NCBI GenBank assembly: GCA_028687335.1
Contig: JAQUAI010000011.1
Span: 1-64,000, forward strand
DNA from: Gallionella sp.
GTDB lineage: Bacteria; Pseudomonadota; Gammaproteobacteria; Burkholderiales; Gallionellaceae
DNA: 64,000 nucleotides
Direction of reading: 5' to 3'
In this document: piece by piece, positions 25,331 to 62,328 of the stretch
Numbering within the stretch: the stretch's first letter is position 1
Layout: the number at the start of each line of letters is the position of its first letter
Notes under the pieces: generated by a model
Seen by the model: the letters and a program-made list of their open reading frames with translations, nothing else
Told to the model about the DNA's origin: nothing
Database searches by the model: none
Made by a program: the position numbers and the translations under genes

Positions 25331-27382
25331 TCATCTTAGGTTCAGTGTATCTTTCATGATCTTCGGTGAAATAAAGATCAACAACTCGCTCTTGTTATCA
25401 GTGCGATTAGTACTTCTGAATAACCCACCAAGAACCGGAACATCTCCCAGCACTGGCACTTTGTTTGTTGTGAATGTGTCGGTCTGAGCATACACCCCGC
25501 CGATTACGACGGTACCACCATTCTCCACCAACACTTGCGTTTTAACTTTATTGGTATCTATGGTTGGTACACCGTTAAACGTTGCCGCACCTACCGAGTC
25601 TTTAGTGACGTTCACATCCATGATCACATTATCATCAGGCGTAATCTGCGGTGTCACTTTCAAACTAAGTATCGCTTTTTTAAACGAGGTCGTGGCAGCA
25701 CCACTACTGCTGGCCTCTTGGTACGGCACTTCAGTACCTTGTTCAATATTTGCTTCAACCTTGTCCGCTGTCACCACACGAGGGCTCGAAATAATCTTAC
25801 CTTTGGTATCGGTTTCCAATGCCGACAACTCCAAATTAAGCAGGCGGGTTGCAGCAGAGTTAAACAAGATCATCGAGAAAGTTCCTGCTGAAGCAGCCGC
25901 AGGCAGATTAACATTGGAACCATTGATCGTGCCGCGTACCGCCGACGGATTATTACTGCCAACCGCAAAACCTGCTCCAGCAGCGGGGGCTGGTGCTGTA
26001 TAGCCCAATTTTACGCCAAGATTCCGCCCAAATTTATCCGATGCCTCAACGATACGCGCCTCAATCATTACTTGACGAACCGGCACATCAATTTGCTTGA
26101 TAAGCTTGCGAACTTCTTCAAGTCGAGAAGGCGTATCCTGAACAAACAAGGTATTAGTACGCGGATCAACCACTGTGCTTCCGCGCTTGGACAAAATACG
26201 CTGTTTATCGTTGGAGAGAATCTTGGTGATTGCGTCACCTTTTTGATAACTCAATTGGAAGCTCTCGGTACGTAGCTCCTCCAGATCCGATATTTCTTGC
26301 TTTGAGGTCAAGTCAATCTTTTCTTTGGCTGCAATTTCTTCGCGCGGGGCAACTTGAATCACGTTGCCATTTTTGCGCATATCCAAACCCCGACTGCTCA
26401 AGATGATATCCAACGCCTGATCCCATGGAACATCTTTCAGACGCAAGGTCAGATTTCCACCCACAGTGTCGCTAATCACCATGTTCAGATTTGTGAAATC
26501 CGCAATTACATTTAGCGCTTCGCGAACATCAATCTTTTGGAAATTCAAAGTCAGCTTCTCACCTGCATATCCAGCCTGATTACCCTTAACTAACTTGTTC
26601 GGGTCTTCAGCAACCGGCTTCACTTCAACAATAAATTTATTATCTGTCTGGTATGCCGCATGCTCCCAAGTACCTTTGGGATCTATCACCATACGCACGT
26701 TATCGCCTTGGGTGTAGGTATCGATCCCCTGCACTGGTGTAGCAAAGTCAACCACATCCAGCTTGCGTTGAAGACTACGTGGCAAAGATGTTTTCACAAA
26801 CTCCACAATCAGCGTAGTTCCCTGCTGCTTAATGTCGATACCAATATTAGAATCCGACAGATCAACCTGAATACGGCCTTCGCCGTTCTTGCCGCGCCTG
26901 AAGTCGATATCCCGCAACGAGTGTTTTTGATTGCCTGATTTAGCTTCGGCAAAACGCGACGTACTACCCTCGCCTGTCGCTGCCTTGCCCTCAAGCGTAA
27001 TCAACACACTATTTCCATCTACTTTCGTGTTGTAAACGAGCATTTGATTCAGATTTACCACCAAGCGCGTACGGCTACCCGCTTGTACGACGTTAGCTCC
27101 GCGCAGATCCCCCTCAGAAAATTCTTGCGCAGTTTTTCCCAATCCGTTTGTTGTGTTAGGAAAGTCGAAAGCGATACGAGGTGGCGTATTGATTGTGAAA
27201 CCGGCAGGAGGATTAGCTAGCGGTTGAGCCAAGTCAACTCTGAGCACAATTTTGCCGTCTCCACTTGAACTTGCACTCAAGCCAGTAATGTTATTCTGCT
27301 CTGCCGCTTGAGCGCAAACAACTCCCAAGGAAAGCAATAACAGCAAAGAATGCGCCACTTTTTTAATCACAGAATCAATCAT
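25331..27382 (-). CDS. pilQ: Type IV pilus secretin PilQ
   Basis: PilQ forms the outer-membrane ring through which the pilus passes. The start is the ATG at 27382, six bases after GGGGGT; an upstream TTG adds four codons. The 683-residue precursor has a signal peptide ending CAQAA. Two AMIN domains (about 30-130 and 150-240) bind peptidoglycan. A secretin/TonB short N-terminal domain with NLNMVISDTVGGNLTLRLK and an N1 domain follow. The C-terminal secretin domain contains VPYQEASSSG and VPVLGDVPVLGGLFRS. It is the last gene of the pil operon and is followed by a terminator. Confidence 0.96.
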   Translation of the reverse strand: MIDSVIKKVAHSLLLLLSLGVVCAQAAEQNNITGLSASSSGDGKIVLRVDLAQPLANPPAGFTINTPPRIAFDFPNTTNGLGKTAQEFSEGDLRGANVVQAGSRTRLVVNLNQMLVYNTKVDGNSVLITLEGKAATGEGSTSRFAEAKSGNQKHSLRDIDFRRGKNGEGRIQVDLSDSNIGIDIKQQGTTLIVEFVKTSLPRSLQRKLDVVDFATPVQGIDTYTQGDNVRMVIDPKGTWEHAAYQTDNKFIVEVKPVAEDPNKLVKGNQAGYAGEKLTLNFQKIDVREALNVIADFTNLNMVISDTVGGNLTLRLKDVPWDQALDIILSSRGLDMRKNGNVIQVAPREEIAAKEKIDLTSKQEISDLEELRTESFQLSYQKGDAITKILSNDKQRILSKRGSTVVDPRTNTLFVQDTPSRLEEVRKLIKQIDVPVRQVMIEARIVEASDKFGRNLGVKLGYTAPAPAAGAGFAVGSNNPSAVRGTINGSNVNLPAAASAGTFSMILFNSAATRLLNLELSALETDTKGKIISSPRVVTADKVEANIEQGTEVPYQEASSSGAATTSFKKAILSLKVTPQITPDDNVIMDVNVTKDSVGAATFNGVPTIDTNKVKTQVLVENGGTVVIGGVYAQTDTFTTNKVPVLGDVPVLGGLFRSTNRTDNKSELLIFISPKIMKDTLNLR

Positions 27383-27395
27383 TATTACCCCCAAA

Positions 27396-51369: not shown

Positions 51370-53076
51370 ATGTTGAACTCAATACGCACACGCTGGCATA
51401 AGTTAGGGGTACAGGAAAAACTGCATATCCTGATTCAAGGCTCGCTTATTTTCTTGTTTGTCATCTCAATGAATTGGGTGATCGAACGCTTTGAGCAGCA
51501 GATCATCGCTCACGCCGAGCAGCGCGCTGACGAAACGGCGGATGGTCTGATCAATGGCATGAACTTGCTGATGCTGACCGGCACGATTTCCGATCCAGCT
51601 AACCGTCAGTTGCTTATCGAAAAGATGGCCAAGTCTGACGGCATCAAGCAGCTACGCATCGTGCGCGGACAGTCGGTCATTGATCAATTCGGTCCCGGCT
51701 TGCCCGAGGAACAGGCGATAGACGAGCTGGATCGGCAAGTACTTCGCACCGGCAAGCCTGCTTTCCAGCGCATCAATGAGGCCGGTCAGGCTCCGGCACT
51801 TCGCGTGGTGGTGCCGTTTATTGCGACGGAAAATTTTCGCGGCACGAACTGTCTTTCTTGCCATCACGGTGCGCCCGGCAGTGTCAACGGGGCGGCCAGT
51901 GTAACGATCGATTTGAGCAAAGATGCGGCAAATCTGGCCGATTTGAAAGCGAATCTGTGGTGGGGGCATCTCGTCATTCAGCTATTGTTGTCGGTGCTGA
52001 TTTGGTGGTTTGTGCGCGCACTCATCGTGCGCAATATCGCCGAGCCGGTGAAAAAGCTGCAATTGGCAATGGCCGAAATTCAGCACAGCAAAGACTTGTC
52101 AAAACGTGCTGATGTGAATGAGCGCAACCCGGACATCGGTGCCATGGCACACAATTTCAACGATCTGCTGGCCAGTCTTGAACGTGCCAACGAGCGGCTC
52201 GATTTGTTTGCTCGAATGTTCGAAAACAGCAGCGAAGCCATCATCATCACCGATGCTAACAGGCGCATCATTACGGTCAATCCGGCCTTCGAACATATCA
52301 CTCAATTCAGTTCGGCAGAGGTGGTCGGACAAAATCCGAAGATTCTCAGCTCAGGCAAACAGACCGACGAGTTTTATCAGCAAATGTGGACTGCGATCAA
52401 CACCGCAGGACAATGGTCGGGCGAGATATGGAACCGACGTAAAAACGGCGATGTGTATCCAGAATGGCTGTCTATTGGCGCGGTAATAAATGCCAAAGGC
52501 GAGGTGATTAATTACGTCGCCCTTTTTTCCGACATCACTCAGCGCAAAGAGGCCGAGCAGCGTATTGAGTTTATGGCGCACTACGATGCGCTCACCAAGC
52601 TACCCAACCGCGTACTGTTCCATGACCGCCTAAAACGCGCACTGGTGTTGGCGCAGCGCAATCAAAGCAAAGTCGGCCTGATGTTCCTCGATTTGGATAA
52701 ATTCAAATCGATCAATGACACGCTCGGCCATCTGGCGGGCGATCAGTTATTACAATCGGTGGCAGAGCGGCTGCGGTCATGCGTACGCGAATCCGACACG
52801 GTCTGCCGTCAAGGCGGGGATGAGTTCATCGTCTTGCTGGAAGAGATTAAAACCACGGACGATATCAGTCTGGTCGCGCACAAAATCATGCAAGCCATGT
52901 CGCTTCCGCATCGCTTGGGCGAAGTGGAGCGCATCGTTAGCTTCAGCATCGGCGCGGCACTCTATCCCGATCATGCGCAAGACGATGAAATGCTGACTCG
53001 TCGCGCCGATGAAGCCATGTATTTAGCCAAAGAAACTGGGCGCAACAATTTCAAGCTTTACCATCCGTCGGAGTAA
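51370..53076 (+). CDS. Membrane diguanylate cyclase with periplasmic CxxCH motif
   Basis: The 568-residue protein makes c-di-GMP. A membrane helix (about 22-40) leads to a periplasmic domain of about 150 residues carrying C161-L-S-C164-H165-H, a c-type haem attachment motif resembling Tll0287-like sensors. A second helix (about 196-216) precedes a HAMP segment (215-268) and a PAS domain (about 280-395, FENSSEAIIITDANRR). The GGDEF domain (about 400-566) has the intact motif CRQGGDEFIV and an I-site RESD five residues before it, so product inhibition is expected. A TATAAT at 51314-51319 and a GC hairpin lie upstream. Haem binding is inferred, not shown. Confidence 0.88.
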   Translation: MLNSIRTRWHKLGVQEKLHILIQGSLIFLFVISMNWVIERFEQQIIAHAEQRADETADGLINGMNLLMLTGTISDPANRQLLIEKMAKSDGIKQLRIVRGQSVIDQFGPGLPEEQAIDELDRQVLRTGKPAFQRINEAGQAPALRVVVPFIATENFRGTNCLSCHHGAPGSVNGAASVTIDLSKDAANLADLKANLWWGHLVIQLLLSVLIWWFVRALIVRNIAEPVKKLQLAMAEIQHSKDLSKRADVNERNPDIGAMAHNFNDLLASLERANERLDLFARMFENSSEAIIITDANRRIITVNPAFEHITQFSSAEVVGQNPKILSSGKQTDEFYQQMWTAINTAGQWSGEIWNRRKNGDVYPEWLSIGAVINAKGEVINYVALFSDITQRKEAEQRIEFMAHYDALTKLPNRVLFHDRLKRALVLAQRNQSKVGLMFLDLDKFKSINDTLGHLAGDQLLQSVAERLRSCVRESDTVCRQGGDEFIVLLEEIKTTDDISLVAHKIMQAMSLPHRLGEVERIVSFSIGAALYPDHAQDDEMLTRRADEAMYLAKETGRNNFKLYHPSE

Positions 53077-53148
53077 ACTCTGCCCGCAGCCGTTTTAGCA
53101 ATACCAGACCCTAAGCCCATAGATGGCGGGCTGGAGAATGAGGAGATT

Positions 53149-54135
53149 ATGAACACACCACCCGATCCGTCACGGCGGATGTTTTTGCACGTGTTAGCCG
53201 CTTTGGGGCTGCTCGGCTTGGGCGGCTGCACGCCGCCGCGCTCACCGCTTAAAATTTCCGGGCAGATCTGGCCGGGTTTCGAGTTTATGTTTCTGGCGCG
53301 CGATCTAGGATGGATGGACAACAACGAAATTCGTCTAATCGAAACCACCGATGCCACCGATTCAGCACAGTTACTCGCTGAAGGGTTAGTTGACGGCGCG
53401 GCACTGACGCTAGATGAGGTGCTACGCATTCGCGCCAGCGGGCTCCCTTTGATTGTGGTCAATATATTCGACTTTTCGGCTGGGGCAGATATGTTACTGG
53501 TCAGACCCGGTATTCATTCGCTCGCCGAGTTGCGCGGCAAACGCATCGGCGTGGAAGAAACTGCGCTTGGCGGGCTGATGCTCTCCAAAGCATTGCAACA
53601 TGGCCACTTATCAATCAAACAAGTCGAATTGGTTCACGCCAGCGTGGACGAGCACGAGTCGCTTTGGCAGCACGGTAAGGTGGATGCCTTGGTCACTTAC
53701 AATCCGGTAGCCGCCCGCCTAGAACGGCAAGGTGCACAACGAATATTCGACACGCGCGCCATTCCCAATAGCGTGGTGGATGTGTTGGCGGTAACGCCGC
53801 ATGCATTGCAAGAACATTCCACCGCCATCAAAAAATTAGTTGATGCACATCACCGTGCTCGCGCGTATTTCAAAACCCAACCGCTGGATGCGCATCTGCA
53901 CATGGCCGCCCGCTTGGGCACCAGTGCCGATCATGTGAGTGACGAGTTCGAGGGGCTGCGTTTGGTGGATGTGGAAGAAAATCGGCGCTTACTAGCAGCG
54001 ACCAACAGCCCCTTACTACAAAGCGCGCGCGATCTGGTTGCCACTATGTTGCAACAGCAATTGCTGGCGCGGGAAGATGCACTCGACGGGCTATTTGACG
54101 CGGGTTATCTGCCGGCAGCGGGAGTGGCTCCATGA
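53149..54135 (+). CDS. ABC-type substrate-binding lipoprotein (SsuA/NMT1/THI5 class)
   Basis: This 328-residue protein has a Tat motif SRRMFLH (residues 8-14) merging with a lipobox LGGC (Cys27), so it is probably exported folded and lipidated. The mature part has the periplasmic binding-protein fold of the SsuA/NMT1/THI5 superfamily: LKISGQIWPGFEFMF, DGAALTLDEVLRIRASG, ADMLLVRPGIHSLAELRGKRIGV (motif given in parts: LAELRGKRIGVEE) and VDALVTYNPVAARLE. No permease or ATPase lies beside it. Instead its end overlaps the next gene, a membrane GGDEF-EAL protein, by four bases (ATGA). It may therefore act as a signal receptor. GAGGAG precedes the start. Confidence 0.88.
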   Translation: MNTPPDPSRRMFLHVLAALGLLGLGGCTPPRSPLKISGQIWPGFEFMFLARDLGWMDNNEIRLIETTDATDSAQLLAEGLVDGAALTLDEVLRIRASGLPLIVVNIFDFSAGADMLLVRPGIHSLAELRGKRIGVEETALGGLMLSKALQHGHLSIKQVELVHASVDEHESLWQHGKVDALVTYNPVAARLERQGAQRIFDTRAIPNSVVDVLAVTPHALQEHSTAIKKLVDAHHRARAYFKTQPLDAHLHMAARLGTSADHVSDEFEGLRLVDVEENRRLLAATNSPLLQSARDLVATMLQQQLLAREDALDGLFDAGYLPAAGVAP

Positions 54136-56971
54136 TATTTAAACCATTCAATCGCCTACCTTTACGTTTTAGCCTGCCGCTAGTGGTGCTGGTAAGCTTT
54201 CTGTTTGCCACGCTGATCTCGCTGATGATCGGCTTGCATCAGGCACACGAGCAATTGCTGGAAGCCGCCTCGCAACATGCGCGCGCCGAAGCGCACCGTT
54301 TTGCCCGCCGCGCCGAAAACGAACTTTCGCACGACACCAAAGACGTACGGCGCATGATTATGCTGCACGCCGCCGAGGTGGAAGACTTTAACTCCACCAT
54401 GACAGCATTGCTCGACCCGCAGGGACGGGTGATCTATTCCTTCCGCAGCGATTGGAGCGGACGTGAATTTGGCGCAGTACATCCGGGCTGGGACAAGCAG
54501 CGCTTTTTGCGAGTGCAGCAAGGAATAACCAGCGATATCAGCCTTGATGTCGAGCATGAAAAATTAAGCGTGCTCACTCCCTACCTTTATCCGCGCGACG
54601 AATCACGTATCGCTTCCATACAAAAAGGCGTGGTGTATGTGGAATACGATTTGCGCCCCGCGTATGTCATCGCTCGGCACCACGAACTGGAACATCACGC
54701 CCCGCATTTACTGGCGGCACTGCTGGCTTTTTTGCTGCTGGCATGGTGGTTGCGCCGTAATCTTTATCAGCCGATTAACGAGCTTTCCCGTCACACCAAA
54801 CGGATCGGCTCCGGCCTGCCATCGGTTGTGTCCGCCAATGATTTCCCCGGTGAGTTGCAAGATCTCGGCCACAGCCTTGCCGATATGGGCGAGCAACTGC
54901 GGCGCGAACAGCACAACTTAATTCAAGAACGTGACCGTAGCCAGCAGTACCTCGCCACCGTCAATGCCATCGTGGTGGTGCTCGACAACGAAGGCCGCGT
55001 GCAAATGATTAACCGCAAAGGCTGTGAGTTGCTGGGGTGGACAGAAACTGAGCTGCTTGGCCACAACTGGTTTGTCCGCTGCCTGCCGCAGCCGCAGGGC
55101 ATGACCGAGGTTTATCCGATATTTCGCCGCATGATGGCGGGTGACCTTCAAGCCGTCGAATATTTCGAAAACTCGATTCTCGCCAAAGATGGTTCGCGCC
55201 ACTTGATTGCTTGGCACAACGGCTATTTCAAAGACGACGCGGGCAACATTACCGGCACCATTTCGTCCGGAGAGGACATCAGCAAGCGTGCCGCACAGGA
55301 AGAAACGCTGCGCAAATTAAATCAGGCCGTCGAGCAAAGTCCAGAAAGCATCGTAATTACCGATCTGCTCGGCAATATCGAGTACGTCAACGAAAGTTTC
55401 GTACGTACCACCGGTTACGCGCGCGAGGAAGTATTGGGACGCAATCCGCGCATGCTGCAATCGGGAAAAACACCGAAGTCGATTTATACCGCCATGTGGG
55501 AAGCGCTAAAACGCGGTGATGTTTGGCAAGGTGAATTCACTAACGGCGACGCAACGGCGGCGAATATGTCATCGCTGCCACGCTTTCCGCCGTGCGCGAT
55601 GCACGCGGTCAACCCAGCCACTATGTCGCGGTGGAGCAGGACATCACCGCGCGCAAACAGGATGCGCAAACTATTCATCATCTGGCAAATTTCGACGCGC
55701 TTACCGGCCTGCCCAACCGTGCCATGCTGCTCGACCGCATTGAAATGATGCTGCCTTTTGCACGCCGCCAAAAACGTCAGGATGCGCTGCTGGTACTTAA
55801 TATCGACCGCTTCAAAACGCTCAACGATGCGCGCGGCCATGCCACCGGCGATCTGCTGTTACAGGCAGTGGCTTTGCGCATCAAAGAGGTGTTGCGCGAA
55901 GGCGATTTACTGGCGCGTATGGGTGGTGATGAGTTTGCCATTCTGGTGCCGGAGCTAGCCTCGCGCAGCGACGATGCCATGCTGCGTATGTTGCATATCG
56001 CCGAACATGTACACGATAGCTTGCACATTCCTTTTGCTGTGGACGGCGAGACCATCCGGCTCGGTGCAAGCATGGGCATTGCGCTCTTCCCACAAAATGC
56101 CGACGACTCGCAAATCGACATTTTGCGCCGTGCCAATACCGCACTGCACCAAGCCAAAACACAGGGCGGCGGGCGTACCGCATTTTTTGAAAGCGCAATG
56201 GACGAGGCGGCCAAACAACGATTTCAGGTGGAACGCGAACTGCGTACCGCCATCCCCAATGGTGAGTTGCGCGTGTTCCTGCAACCGCAGGTGGATGCTC
56301 AAGGCAATATGGTTGCCGCCGAGGCGCTGGTACGCTGGCAACACCCGCAGCGCGGACTACTCGCACCAGGTGTGTTCATCCCCATCGCGGAAGAGAGCGA
56401 TTTGATTGTCGATCTCGATGACTGGATGCTGGCCGAGGTATGCCGTTTACTGGCACGGGATATGTTTGCAGGTCGCCAGTTCCGCATCGCGGTCAACGTC
56501 AGCCCACGCCAATTCCGCAAGGCGGGGTTTGCCGAAGGCGTGCTGGCTCGCTTGCGCAACAGCGGTGCCGAAGCCAGCCACCTCACACTGGAAGTTACCG
56601 AGGGACTCATGTTGCAAGATGTGAATTCGGTTATCGCCACAATGAGCGGCCTGTCCAACAGCGGCATCCATTTTTCCGTGGACGACTTTGGTACGGGCTA
56701 TTCCTCGCTCGCCTACCTAAAGCGGTTGCCGCTTAACGAGCTCAAGATCGATAAGACGTTCGTGCAAGACGCACCCAGCGACCCGGATGATGCGGCACTG
56801 GTTGAAGGTATGCTGTCGCTCGCCAAACACTTGCACCTGAGCGTGGTGGCCGAAGGCGTGGAGACACAGGCACAAGCCGACTTCCTCAACGCGCACGGTA
56901 CGGTTATTCATCAAGGCTATTTGTTCGGCAAACCCGAACCGGCCGAAACAATATTGGCAAAATTAAAATAA
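54132..56971 (+). pseudogene. Membrane PAS-PAS-GGDEF-EAL protein, frameshifted
   Basis: Two frames together encode a dual-domain c-di-GMP protein of about 946 residues. Frame one (from 54132) has a helix at about 13-34, a periplasmic domain, a helix at about 196-214, HAMP, and two PAS domains, up to WQGEFTN. Frame two continues with RRNGGEYVI and an intact GGDEF (RMGGDEFAIL, I-site REGD). An intact EAL domain (AAEALVRWQHP, VDDFGTGYSSLAYLKRLP) follows. The break falls at 55544-55547. Restoring one C there makes the PAS segment read as in the paralogue at 51370. The lesion is either a real mutation or a base-calling error. The SBP gene overlaps its start. Confidence 0.85.
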
Positions 56972-56983
56972 AGGCATTGCAGT

Positions 56984-58438
56984 ATGAAAGAGCTCTCCGT
57001 TATTTTTCCTTGGAATCCGAATTTTGAAACCGGCGTAGCCATCATCGATGAGCAGCACAAAAAGCTGGTCGATCTGCTTAATGCGCTGGCCGAGCATCTG
57101 GCTTACGGTTCCGATGCACCCACGCTGGAGCGCGTGTTCGACGAGTTGACCGATTACACCGTGTACCACTTTCAGACCGAAGAAAAACTGTGGCACCAAT
57201 ATCTGCCGCAGGACGAAATGACGCTAGCTCACGAACGCACTCACCTAAGCTTCGTTAATGATGTGATGCGCTTCCGGCAAGACATTGATCGTTTGACTTC
57301 GGATCAGGTAGTGGAAGAAGTGGTGTCTTTTCTCACCCACTGGCTGGCATTTCACATTCTCGAAACCGACAAGCATATGTCCAAAATTCTGCTCGCCTTA
57401 CAACAAGGGCAGACGTTGGAACAGGCCAAGGCTTTTGCCAGCGTGGAGATGAGCGGCGCGATGCGTGTGCTGATCGAAACGATTCTCAAAATGTACGACA
57501 ACCTTTCCACTCGCACTCTGCAACTGATGCGTGAAATCGCCGAACGGCAACGCGCCGAAGCACGCCTGCGCTTATCCAAAGATGTGATCGATAGCACGCT
57601 GGAAGCAATTTTCGTAACCACTGCTACCGGCGAGATCATTGATACCAATCCCGCATTTAGCAGCGATGTCGACGCAACTCACGAAGCCCTGCTCGGACGC
57701 AATATCCGTGCGATTAAACCGACGCTATTCACCAATGAAAAGACCGATGAGATATGGGAAATCGCCGCCGCTAGCGGCCACTGGGCGGGAGAAATTATCG
57801 GGCGTGACGCGCATGGCGCAATGGAATCAGGCTGGCTGTCACTCTCGGCTATCCGCGATAAAGAGGGAGAAATTACCCACTACGTTGGCGTACTTTCCTC
57901 CATCCGCCAATTAATCGCGCGCCAGCAAAGCTTGGAGCAAGCCGCAAATTTCGACATGCTGACCGGCTTGCCCAATCGCCGACTACTGAAAGACCGACTC
58001 GACCATGCGCTACGCCGCAGCCAGCGCAGTGGTGAAATGCTGGCGATTTGTTTCCTTGACTTGGATGGCTTCAAACAAGTCAACGACCAATACGGTCACG
58101 ATGCGGGAGATGAATTACTGCGGGTGGTAGGCGCACGTCTTGGTCATCTGCTGCGCGGCGAAGACACTGTGGCACGGCTGGGCGGCGACGAATTCGTGCT
58201 GTTGTTTGAATCGCTACATCAAACAGAAGACCTACCTCCCGTGCTGGAACGCGTCCTCGCCGAAGTGGCGTTACCCATTATCTGCGACGGCCGCGCCGTG
58301 CAAGTCACCGCCAGCATCGGTGCAACCGTGCATCCGCGCGACAACAGCGAAGCCGAACAACTACTCGCCCACGCCGACCAAGCCATGTATGAGGCCAAGC
58401 GACTAGGTAAGTCGCGTTACTCGCTATTCGTCAGCTGA
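56984..58438 (+). CDS. Bacteriohemerythrin-PAS-GGDEF diguanylate cyclase
   Basis: The 484-residue cytoplasmic protein starts 12 bp after the GGDEF-EAL gene. The N-terminal hemerythrin domain (about 8-137) keeps all seven expected di-iron ligands: H25, H62, E66, H83, H87, H124 and D129. A coiled segment (about 165-195) leads to a PAS domain (195-310, STLEAIFVTTATGEIIDTNP). The C-terminal GGDEF domain (about 318-484) has ARLGGDEFVLL and an I-site RGED. The layout suggests oxygen or redox sensing coupled to c-di-GMP synthesis. No membrane helix is seen. Confidence 0.93.
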   Translation: MKELSVIFPWNPNFETGVAIIDEQHKKLVDLLNALAEHLAYGSDAPTLERVFDELTDYTVYHFQTEEKLWHQYLPQDEMTLAHERTHLSFVNDVMRFRQDIDRLTSDQVVEEVVSFLTHWLAFHILETDKHMSKILLALQQGQTLEQAKAFASVEMSGAMRVLIETILKMYDNLSTRTLQLMREIAERQRAEARLRLSKDVIDSTLEAIFVTTATGEIIDTNPAFSSDVDATHEALLGRNIRAIKPTLFTNEKTDEIWEIAAASGHWAGEIIGRDAHGAMESGWLSLSAIRDKEGEITHYVGVLSSIRQLIARQQSLEQAANFDMLTGLPNRRLLKDRLDHALRRSQRSGEMLAICFLDLDGFKQVNDQYGHDAGDELLRVVGARLGHLLRGEDTVARLGGDEFVLLFESLHQTEDLPPVLERVLAEVALPIICDGRAVQVTASIGATVHPRDNSEAEQLLAHADQAMYEAKRLGKSRYSLFVS

Positions 58439-58535: not shown

Positions 58536-58630
58536 TGCGTCCCTCGCTAGGGGTCTGCCCGAGAAATTAAAATCGCGGCAGTGAGACACACCCTTTGAAC
58601 CTGTACGGGTCATGCCGTCGTAGGGAAGCA
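58536..58630 (+). promoter_or_regulatory. TPP riboswitch of thiC
   Basis: The thi-box cores are present: GGGGTCTGCCCGAGAAAT and ACCCTTTGAACCTG, then CGTAGGGAAGC. The P1 stem forms between TGCGTCCCT (58536-58544) and AGGGAAGCA (58622-58630) with one mismatch. It lies in the thiC leader, 36 bases before the ATG. TPP binding should lower thiC expression. Confidence 0.93.
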
Positions 58631-58636
58631 TCCGAT

Positions 58637-60538
<1,902 letters not shown>

Positions 60539-60564: not shown

Positions 60565-62328
60565 ATGTTGCGTAAATTATTGTTGGTTGGCGCGCTACAA
60601 GGGTGGGCACTGTGGGGACTCTGGAAGGCGCGCGAATTAAAAGTATGGCCCGCGACAGATGCCCTCAGCGAACGCACATTCCTGTACCTTTTTCTTGCCG
60701 TTCCCCTCGCAATTTATCTAACTGAAGGTATCGTCGCGCTCGCTCGCCAACGGCGTTTATGGCTGCTTGGAGTGATAGCCGCACTTTTTCCTTTACTCGG
60801 CGCATACAGTGGATGGGCAGACTATGCCGTCAGCTTTATGGGCAACGTAGGCAACCTTCCACCTGCACGTCCATCAGATTTATTTGCCGCCGCCGTGCTC
60901 GGATTTGTCTTAATTCCTTTGCTGACACACTTTGACACGCAACAACGTAGCTGGCCTTACCACGAGCTGTTTGAGACAGCGTGGCGCAATGTCATTCTGT
61001 GCATCAGTGCGGCATTTTTAACGGGTGTTTTTTGGGGTGTGCTCTTTGCGGGGTCAGAGTTGTTGAATCTGATTGGACTAGGCTTCATGCGTGAGCTCAT
61101 CAAACAGCCTCTCTTTTCAATCACCATCACGAGCATCGCTTTTGCTACCGCCTTTGCGCTAGCGTTAGATCGTGCCGAAATGGTAGTTACCTTACGACGC
61201 TTCCAGCTTTCTATGCTGGCATGGTTGCTGCCGTTGTTAATGATGTTCATCCTGATATGGGTGGTAGCCGTTCCTTTCACAGGGGTTGAGCTACTGTTCC
61301 AAACGCATAGCGCAGCATTCATCCTGCTATGGTGTGCTGCTTTATGTATCAGCTTCGTCAACGCTGCGTATCAGGATGGCACCGCCACCCCGCCTTATGG
61401 CAAACACTTGAGCAAATTACTCGCATGGACTTGGCTGGCACTTCCCGTTGTTATCGCGGTTGCGTGGTGGGCAATCGGGCTACGCATCGCGCAATATGGT
61501 TGGAGCGAAGATCGTGTGTGGGGCGTATTTGTTGTGGTGATGACAACGTTGTACGTAATTGGCTACTCCGCCTCTTCGTTGCGCAATAAGGGCTGGTTAA
61601 GCTCTATCGGCAAAACCAATATGTGGTCAGCCGTGGTGCTGTGCTTAGGCTTGTTTGCATTGCTTTCACCCATTGCCGACGCCCGCCGTATCGCGGTGAA
61701 TAGTCAAATGCAACGCTTAACTCAACAAGCGATTGCCAGTAATGAATTTGATTTCGATTATTTACGTTGGCACGCAGGCAAATATGGCCAAGAAGCTTTG
61801 CACACATTGGCCGCAGGGATTGAGCATCCTGACCACGATTCCTTGGCTTCCAAAGCCAAGCAGGTATTAGCGCAAACACAACGCTGGCAAACTGAAGTTG
61901 GTATTAAAGCACTCACGCTGGATGAGGTGCGTTCGCGTATTCATGTATTGCCGACCTCGGCACAGCTAGATGATGCGCTATTACAAGCCATGCAATCTAA
62001 ATCTAAGAACTGGCAACTTCAGCAATGCTTTAACACTGATACCGAATGTACGGTGTGGATGATTGATTTAAACGGCGACCACACTCAAGAAGCTGTTGTA
62101 CTAATTAAGCACCGCACCGCAGATTCGGGCACGGCACTGGTAATGCAACGCGGCGTGGAAAATCAATATCAGTTAATCGGCACACTCGATTGGCCTAATG
62201 ACACGCCACTTTCCCAGCGTCTTAAGGAAATAGAAAACGGTCAATTTAAGGTTGTTGCACCCACTTGGAATGCAATTGAATTAGCGGGAAAACGCCTGCA
62301 AGTTAGCCCCTACCGTTTTAACCCGTAA
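60565..62328 (+). CDS. DUF4153 domain membrane protein
   Basis: This 587-residue protein has about ten to eleven hydrophobic helices in residues 1-380, ending around [19 protein letters not shown] soluble C-terminal region of about 200 residues follows; [22 protein letters not shown] there resembles an FG-GAP/EF-hand-like calcium-binding segment (DLNGDHTQE). The N-terminal membrane part matches DUF4153, whose role is unknown. It begins 26 bp after thiC. Its stop overlaps the next start codon (TAATG), so the YkgJ-type gene is coupled to it. Confidence 0.8.

What the first reader, a model, noticed from the sequence alone, without database searches (positions are those of the whole stretch)
51370..58438. 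Four-gene c-di-GMP block with haem, ligand and oxygen-type inputs
Seen: three GGDEF proteins and one binding protein lie on one strand with small gaps or overlaps. Inputs are a periplasmic CxxCH domain, an orphan SsuA/NMT1/THI5-class lipoprotein, a periplasmic domain with two PAS modules, and a hemerythrin with all seven ligands. All three GGDEF motifs and their I-sites (RxxD five residues upstream) are intact, and one protein adds an intact EAL domain. Inference: an integrated redox/oxygen and small-molecule module controlling c-di-GMP, possibly surface behaviour or the type IV pili encoded in the same window. I know of no described system with this composition.
Basis: partly seen in the sequence, partly recalled or inferred. 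Interest (0 to 1): 0.72.

Follow-up and report, generated by a model that had tools for sequence, protein, structure and literature searches.

The report
Binding-protein-gated c-di-GMP receptor pair
The four-gene block is not a conserved unit, but its middle two genes, a periplasmic binding protein and the membrane receptor encoded right behind it, belong to a widespread and apparently undescribed family of paired sensors whose output end is swapped between c-di-GMP enzymes and histidine kinases.

Summary
Genes, domains and motifs are as described, with one correction: the third gene is not intact. Its sensor/PAS half (54132-55748) and GGDEF-EAL half (55592-56971) lie in different frames; three relatives read through.

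The four-gene order is not conserved in what I read. Of 108 distinct loci of the binding-protein (SBP) family, four have a P1-type or a hemerythrin gene nearby, none both. P1 follows an oligoribonuclease-type gene in 7 of 10 loci read.

The middle pair is conserved. Of 107 distinct SBP genes, 96 are followed within 100 bp, same strand, by a receptor gene, 39 with a 4-bp overlap; other genes there, 42 of 833. In a phylum-wide sample a receptor gene follows in 37 of 38 places (26 of them from one family, one seen before); in the 38th the SBP frame is broken and a receptor follows. On the SBP tree (92 rows) the receptor's periplasmic type changes 2-4 times, the output (histidine kinase or GGDEF/EAL) 19 times: expected if the SBP docks on the periplasmic domain.

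Best reading: an NspS-MbaA-like, SBP-gated c-di-GMP receptor using another SBP family. The ligand is unknown.

The parts
51370..53076 (+). P1: membrane diguanylate cyclase with a CxxCH domain (no Pfam match), HAMP, PAS, GGDEF (GGDEF at residue 482, I-site RESD at 473). Not a conserved partner of the SBP pair
   Evidence: orthologues
53149..54135 (+). SBP: NMT1/SsuA-family binding protein with RRxFL-type leader and lipobox at C27; predicted TauA/SsuA fold; core of the conserved pair
54132..54135 (+). 4-bp ATGA overlap of SBP stop and receptor start
   Evidence: same overlap in 39 of 107 distinct relatives
54132..55748 (+). P3 receptor, sensor half: TM, single Cache-like periplasmic domain (about residues 37-186), TM, HAMP, PAS, start of second PAS; the ORF then runs on in the wrong frame
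55538..55550 (+). Place where the conserved second PAS domain changes reading frame
55592..56971 (+). P3 receptor, output half: GGDEF (I-site REGD) and full-length EAL, in the other frame; conserved sequence in this frame begins at about 55544
56984..58438 (+). P4: bacteriohemerythrin-PAS-GGDEF, soluble diguanylate cyclase. Not a conserved partner
   Evidence: orthologues

Best explanation
The functional core is a two-gene sensor. The periplasmic NMT1-family binding protein takes up a small ligand and docks on the single-Cache periplasmic domain of the receptor encoded by the overlapping next gene; docking changes the helix/HAMP state and so the balance of the receptor's GGDEF (c-di-GMP synthesis) and EAL (c-di-GMP breakdown) domains. 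It works like NspS-MbaA of Vibrio and Sinorhizobium and like LuxP-LuxQ, with a different binding-protein family. P1 (CxxCH domain) and P4 (hemerythrin) are two further, independent diguanylate cyclases, probably redox/oxygen-responsive, that sit beside the pair in this genome. Shown by computation: gene pairing, overlap, predicted folds, co-variation of SBP with periplasmic domain type. Inferred: physical docking, direction of control, ligand (perhaps a small nitrogen compound). In this genome the receptor gene is frame-broken as assembled, so its output may be lost or may come from a separately translated GGDEF-EAL half.
Against: The window's receptor gene is broken in frame. No interaction was modelled or measured; a transporter for the SBP elsewhere in the genome was not searched for. 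In 4 of 113 rows the next gene is on the opposite strand (L071, L077, L095, L181); in L058 and L078 the receptor is upstream instead. Near-copies inflate clustering on the tree, and the output label is clustered too (19 against 30.8 shuffled). The window's own SBP lies in no starred small group. Only 58 of the 120 closest proteins show a lipobox by pattern, so the lipid anchor is not a family feature. The PAS domains could be the main input.
Confidence: 0.72

Rival explanations
1. The four genes form one operon-level module that integrates haem/redox, ligand and oxygen inputs into c-di-GMP.
For: Same strand, gaps of 72, -4 and 12 bp; terminator-like sites no more than expected (8 against a shuffled mean of 9.0). 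P1 and P4 orthologues are close neighbours in G466 and G028. One same-genus genome (G009, L041) has a GGDEF-hemerythrin gene 121 bp behind an SBP-receptor pair.
Against: No other locus with all four was seen; 3 hemerythrin and 1 P1-type neighbours in 108 distinct SBP loci, none both. P1 stands behind an oligoribonuclease-type gene in 7 of 10 loci. P1 relatives occur in 99 and P4 relatives in 41 of 158 family genomes (own included), SBP relatives in 43.
Confidence: 0.15
2. The SBP is an ordinary ABC-transporter subunit (sulfonate/taurine or urea type) whose permease lies elsewhere; its place beside a receptor gene is incidental.
For: Fold and family are those of SsuA/TauA transporters. Outgroup rows read in detail sit with permease, creatininase-like, type III glutamine synthetase, urea carboxylase and allophanate hydrolase genes.
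Against: Receptor directly downstream in 96 of 107 and 37 of 38; an ABC permease downstream in 2 of 113 rows over 100 bits, both outgroup rows (L044, L045).
Confidence: 0.08
3. The SBP senses a thiamin precursor (ThiY/THI5-like), which would tie the block to the TPP riboswitch and thiC just downstream.
Against: TauA and SsuA fit better by 5 to 7 Z units; four thiC neighbourhoods read in the genus (L270-L273) show no GGDEF or SBP gene; no thiC match in any of 158 mapped loci of the SBP sets.
Confidence: 0.03
4. The pair is decaying: the receptor gene is a real pseudogene and P3 has no c-di-GMP function here.
For: Frame change inside the second PAS domain; another same-genus receptor is split in a like place (L178), and one same-genus SBP match holds two stops (G451).
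Against: Draft genome with possible one-base errors; both halves keep intact motifs and domain matches, and the SBP is intact.
Confidence: 0.25

Closest known systems
NspS-MbaA (polyamine sensing, Vibrio cholerae, Sinorhizobium meliloti)
   Same: Binding-protein gene directly upstream of and overlapping a membrane receptor gene that turns over c-di-GMP (PMC9993111, passages)
   Different: NspS is PotD/PotF-like; here NMT1/SsuA-like. In relatives of this pair the output is often a histidine kinase, and many receptors carry a second binding-protein domain (PF12974)
LuxP-LuxQ (autoinducer-2)
   Same: Periplasmic binding protein with a PDC/Cache-fold receptor; LuxQ appears in the Foldseek list for the receptor domain
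   Different: Another binding-protein type and kinase output (recalled); here NMT1 SBP and, in the window, GGDEF-EAL
TtrS / ThsS (tetrathionate, thiosulfate kinases) and AioX-AioS (arsenite)
   Same: PhnD-type (Phosphonate-bd) sensor domain in the receptor (PMC5408782, passages), as in 71 of 102 labelled receptors paired with this SBP family; AioX is a separate periplasmic binding protein working with a kinase (PMC5908839, listing and start of abstract only)
   Different: I saw no NMT1 partner described in those passages; the window's receptor has a Cache-fold domain instead
Bhr-DGC of Vibrio cholerae (hemerythrin-GGDEF)
   Same: P4 has the same input-output combination (PMC8846402, passages)
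   Different: P4 has a PAS domain between hemerythrin and GGDEF

Membership tests
NspS-MbaA system | SBP gene directly upstream of and overlapping a GGDEF-EAL receptor gene | tested here: met
   (receptor frame broken in the window, unbroken at that point in P0122-P0124)
NspS-MbaA system | SBP of the PotD/PotF polyamine type | tested here: not met
   Pfam hits are PF09084 NMT1 and PF13379 only; best folds TauA and SsuA
NspS-MbaA system | Polyamine-dependent control of c-di-GMP | not testable with these tools
   needs binding and activity assays
SsuA/TauA ABC transporter SBP | Fold and sequence family | tested here: met
   SsuA_fam score 95.2 is below its 163.5 cut-off
SsuA/TauA ABC transporter SBP | Permease and ATPase genes beside it | tested here: not met
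   none among the block's genes; receptor downstream in 96 of 107 and 37 of 38 relatives
ThiY/THI5 pyrimidine-precursor binders | Specific family match | tested here: inconclusive
Cache/PDC sensor domains | Fold of the P3 periplasmic domain | tested here: met
   (predicted model, pLDDT 87.9)
Cache/PDC sensor domains | Match to a named Pfam Cache family | tested here: not met
   24 members scanned at E 0.01: HAMP in 22, two single stray hits, no Cache family
Bacteriohemerythrin diguanylate cyclase | Seven metal ligands plus GGDEF | tested here: met
Conserved four-gene redox/ligand/oxygen module | Gene order kept in relatives | tested here: not met

The most novel reading that the evidence does not exclude
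A previously undescribed, widespread class of binding-protein-gated receptors: an NMT1-fold protein that has left transport and become the dedicated input of membrane receptors. Its partner domain is either an unnamed Cache-fold domain or a second, unrelated binding-protein domain (PhnD type), so that in the latter two different binding proteins meet on one receptor, while the cytoplasmic output is freely exchanged between histidine kinase and c-di-GMP enzymes. The signal may be a small nitrogen compound, judged from the transporter-type outgroup.
Probability: 0.45. Interest if true: 0.7.

Novelty: new variant of a known kind. Interest (0 to 1): 0.52.

Why it matters
A 2022 review says that, of the binding-protein clan, only one Pfam family had been studied in c-di-GMP networks (PMC8846402, section 10 read). 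Here another one is tied by gene coupling to a receptor family. It was found in 40 of 398 genomes sampled over the window's phylum and, by record titles, in genera known (recalled) as iron oxidisers, methanotrophs, sulfate reducers and denitrifiers. One ligand found for any member would explain the input of many kinases and c-di-GMP enzymes at once, and the natural swapping of outputs behind one input makes the family a test bed for how binding proteins gate receptors.

Tried and rejected
Rejected: the four-gene unit. Rejected as main reading: the thiamin link. Considered: a programmed frameshift in P3; I saw no slippery heptamer around 55,542 (own reading, no tool), and the relatives need none. 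Rfam at gathering score over 20 kb gave nothing; a small-region search gave the TPP riboswitch at its gathering score. A search for the P3 sensor half in 399 order genomes (at most four candidates scored per genome) gave one match over nearly the whole query (G311, 30%); no SBP ORF over 80 bits lies in the stretch read around it (L163).

Literature: ten paper searches. NMT1+GGDEF+periplasmic binding protein (21), NMT1+GGDEF+histidine kinase (43) and PhnD+histidine kinase+GGDEF+periplasmic (63) found 0 papers; THI5-like+c-di-GMP found one riboswitch paper (85). 'Undescribed' means not found by these searches in an open-licence library. A survey says 13 of 22 SBP families were known to act on receptors without naming them in the passages I saw (PMC9602780), so NMT1 may already be one of them.

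Caveats on counts. The 80 genome-contig loci are the best 80 of 393. Five pairs of loci hold the same SBP (L051/L165, L055/L166, L063/L167, L067/L169, L119/L121); one search counts them, drop identical C-termini. The phylum sample is not fully independent: 26 of its 40 SBP-positive genomes are of one family, and one of its 38 fetched places (L275) is the same SBP as L116. By three of the 38 matches hold an internal stop. In the trees two rows (L058, L078), whose receptor lies 30 bp upstream, were labelled by hand PhnD/HK. 'Cache-type' in the tree means no PhnD match: 31 rows, the window's included; 24 such receptor domains were aligned (A3), one modelled. Domain labels in my maps come from phmmer with single query domains; seven PhnD labels were checked with Pfam and 7 of 7 held. 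The ORF maps behind the control may include spurious ORFs. L306 and L307 receptors start 107 bp away by my script's start choice. The family counts are at E 1e-25, 1e-15 and 1e-25, include the window's genome, and the SBP count includes transporter-type matches.
Full report
Where it is. The window is part of contig C24 of a 2.40-Mb draft genome, 88.5% complete in 31 contigs.

What the block holds. P1 (51370-53076) is a membrane GGDEF protein with a CxxCH between its hydrophobic segments; no Pfam family was listed for residues 1-217 at E 10. The SBP (53149-54135) is an NMT1/SsuA-family protein with a lipobox. P3 (54132-56971) is a receptor in two frames. P4 (56984-58438) is bacteriohemerythrin-PAS-GGDEF. 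All three GGDEF and I-site motifs are intact. The genome has 44 GGDEF matches, 43 over the cut-off, so GGDEF neighbours as such are common.

The broken third gene. The first ORF ends at 55748 and the GGDEF-EAL ORF lies in another frame. Conserved sequence leaves the first frame and enters the second near 55,542, inside the second PAS domain. A protein search with the sensor half found P0122 (82%, 863 aa), P0123 (56%, 945 aa) and P0124 (53%, 950 aa); aligned with the two pieces they run through that point without a break. P0122 itself has SGDEF instead of GGDEF and a deviant C-terminus, so errors in such drafts are plausible. Whether the window's break is real cannot be told here.

The four-gene order. 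In 158 genomes of the family, own included, SBP relatives occur in 43 (E 1e-25), P1 relatives in 99 (E 1e-15), P4 relatives in 41 (E 1e-25). Besides the window, 12 genomes have P4 matches of 61-66% identity in the rows. I read 8 P4 loci: in two (G466, G028) the P1 orthologue is a close neighbour, without an SBP; in six neither P1 nor an SBP lies beside it. In 10 P1 loci read, 7 have an oligoribonuclease-type gene directly upstream; four of these were tested and all four match the oligoribonuclease equivalog. In this genome that gene is on contig C11, so P1 here is away from the usual place. Of 108 distinct SBP loci mapped, three have a hemerythrin gene (L041, L081, L091) and one a P1-type gene (L066) within 7.5 kb or what was held (median about 6.9 kb a side), none both. 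The block is therefore a local assembly as far as these searches go.

The pair that is conserved. SBP relatives were mapped in three sets: relatives (fetched), the best 80 of 393 in named records and the family (20 regions fetched). Of 113 rows above 100 bits, 102 have a receptor gene on the same strand within 100 bp: 49 GGDEF/EAL, 41 histidine kinase, 12 with PhnD or PAS only (7 of these cut by the end of the DNA); 40 have a 4-bp overlap. The other 11 are: 2 ABC permease (L044, L045), 4 opposite strand (L071, L077, L095, L181), 2 same strand without a domain match (L037, whose next gene has HAMP and PAS by Pfam, and L078), 2 beyond 100 bp (L031, a PhnD kinase at 110 bp, and L058), 1 contig end (L032). 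In L058 and L078 the receptor is 30 bp upstream instead. After removing identical copies it is 96 of 107, against 42 of 833 other genes of at least 150 aa in the same loci.

A wider test. Of 398 genomes drawn over the phylum, 40 have the SBP (E 1e-40). The 38 places outside the window's genome and G056 were fetched: 32 are followed within 100 bp by a kinase receptor, 3 by a GGDEF or EAL receptor, 2 at 107 bp by a PhnD-domain ORF without a visible output; in one (L285) no SBP ORF stands because of a stop, and the next ORF has its Cache-type domain from right behind the SBP match, then PAS and kinase; none has an ABC gene next. One place (L275) repeats L116, and 26 of the 40 genomes are of one family, f79, 24 of whose 26 places have kinase receptors. 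Outside f79 the 12 places give 9 kinase (L285 counted) and 3 c-di-GMP receptors. So kinases look commoner over the phylum, and the c-di-GMP version is the frequent alternative in the window's family and several of the named genera.

Co-variation. On a tree of 114 SBPs the seven outgroup rows L044-L050, four of them with an ABC permease next, lie across a starred branch from the others (the root is for drawing only). For 92 rows with both labels, the receptor's periplasmic type changes 2 times (quick tree) or 4 times (careful tree), the cytoplasmic output 19 times in both; shuffled means on the careful tree 24.8 and 30.8. An SBP that touches the periplasmic domain but not the output predicts this. 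Near-copies help any label to cluster, so the contrast between the two labels counts, not the single numbers.

Comparison with the known. NspS-MbaA is the nearest in logic: overlapping SBP and receptor genes (PMC9993111, passages); the SBP family differs, so this is not a member. PMC8846402 (section 10 read) says only SBP_bac_3 of the clan had been studied in c-di-GMP networks; PMC9602780 (passages) says 13 of 22 SBP families were known to act on receptors, so NMT1 may be among them.

Verdict. Observation right except for the broken third gene; the four-part module not supported; the binding-protein/receptor pair is real, widespread, and a new variant of a known kind.

Noticed in passing
58539-58643 and 58667-60538: TPP riboswitch (54.3 bits, equal to the gathering score) upstream of thiC; not listed in the 20-kb gathering search, found in the small-region search.
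   Followed up: partly
L040 (own genome, contig C17): A second SBP-receptor pair in the same genome (32% identical SBP), behind another GGDEF-EAL gene; that upstream gene is two ORFs (481 and 1007 aa, 4-bp overlap) where G009 (L041) has one of 1238 aa.
   Followed up: partly
L255, L256, L257, L258, L259, L261, L263: P1-type CxxCH diguanylate cyclase directly behind an oligoribonuclease-type gene (four of seven tested by family search), the enzyme that (recalled) removes pGpG, the c-di-GMP breakdown product; the CxxCH stands in the 10 P1 orthologues found by that pattern.
   Followed up: partly
Genomes of family f79: 26 of the 40 SBP-positive genomes of the phylum sample fall in one unnamed family of 1.4-3.1-Mb genomes outside the window's class; 24 of 26 have kinase receptors. 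They might be Zetaproteobacteria iron oxidisers (guess).
   Followed up: no
L071, L077, L095: In three loci (Methylomicrobium, Methylotuvimicrobium and a gammaproteobacterial draft) the SBP stands without a receptor gene directly beside it.
   Followed up: partly
L178: Another same-genus pair whose receptor is split between the PAS and GGDEF-EAL parts (518 and 420 aa), much like the window's.
   Followed up: no
25331-27394: Secretin with AMIN domain (pilus-type) in the window, about 24 kb from the block.
   Followed up: no
60565-62328: 587-aa ORF with several hydrophobic stretches behind thiC without a Pfam match at E 1e-8.
   Followed up: no
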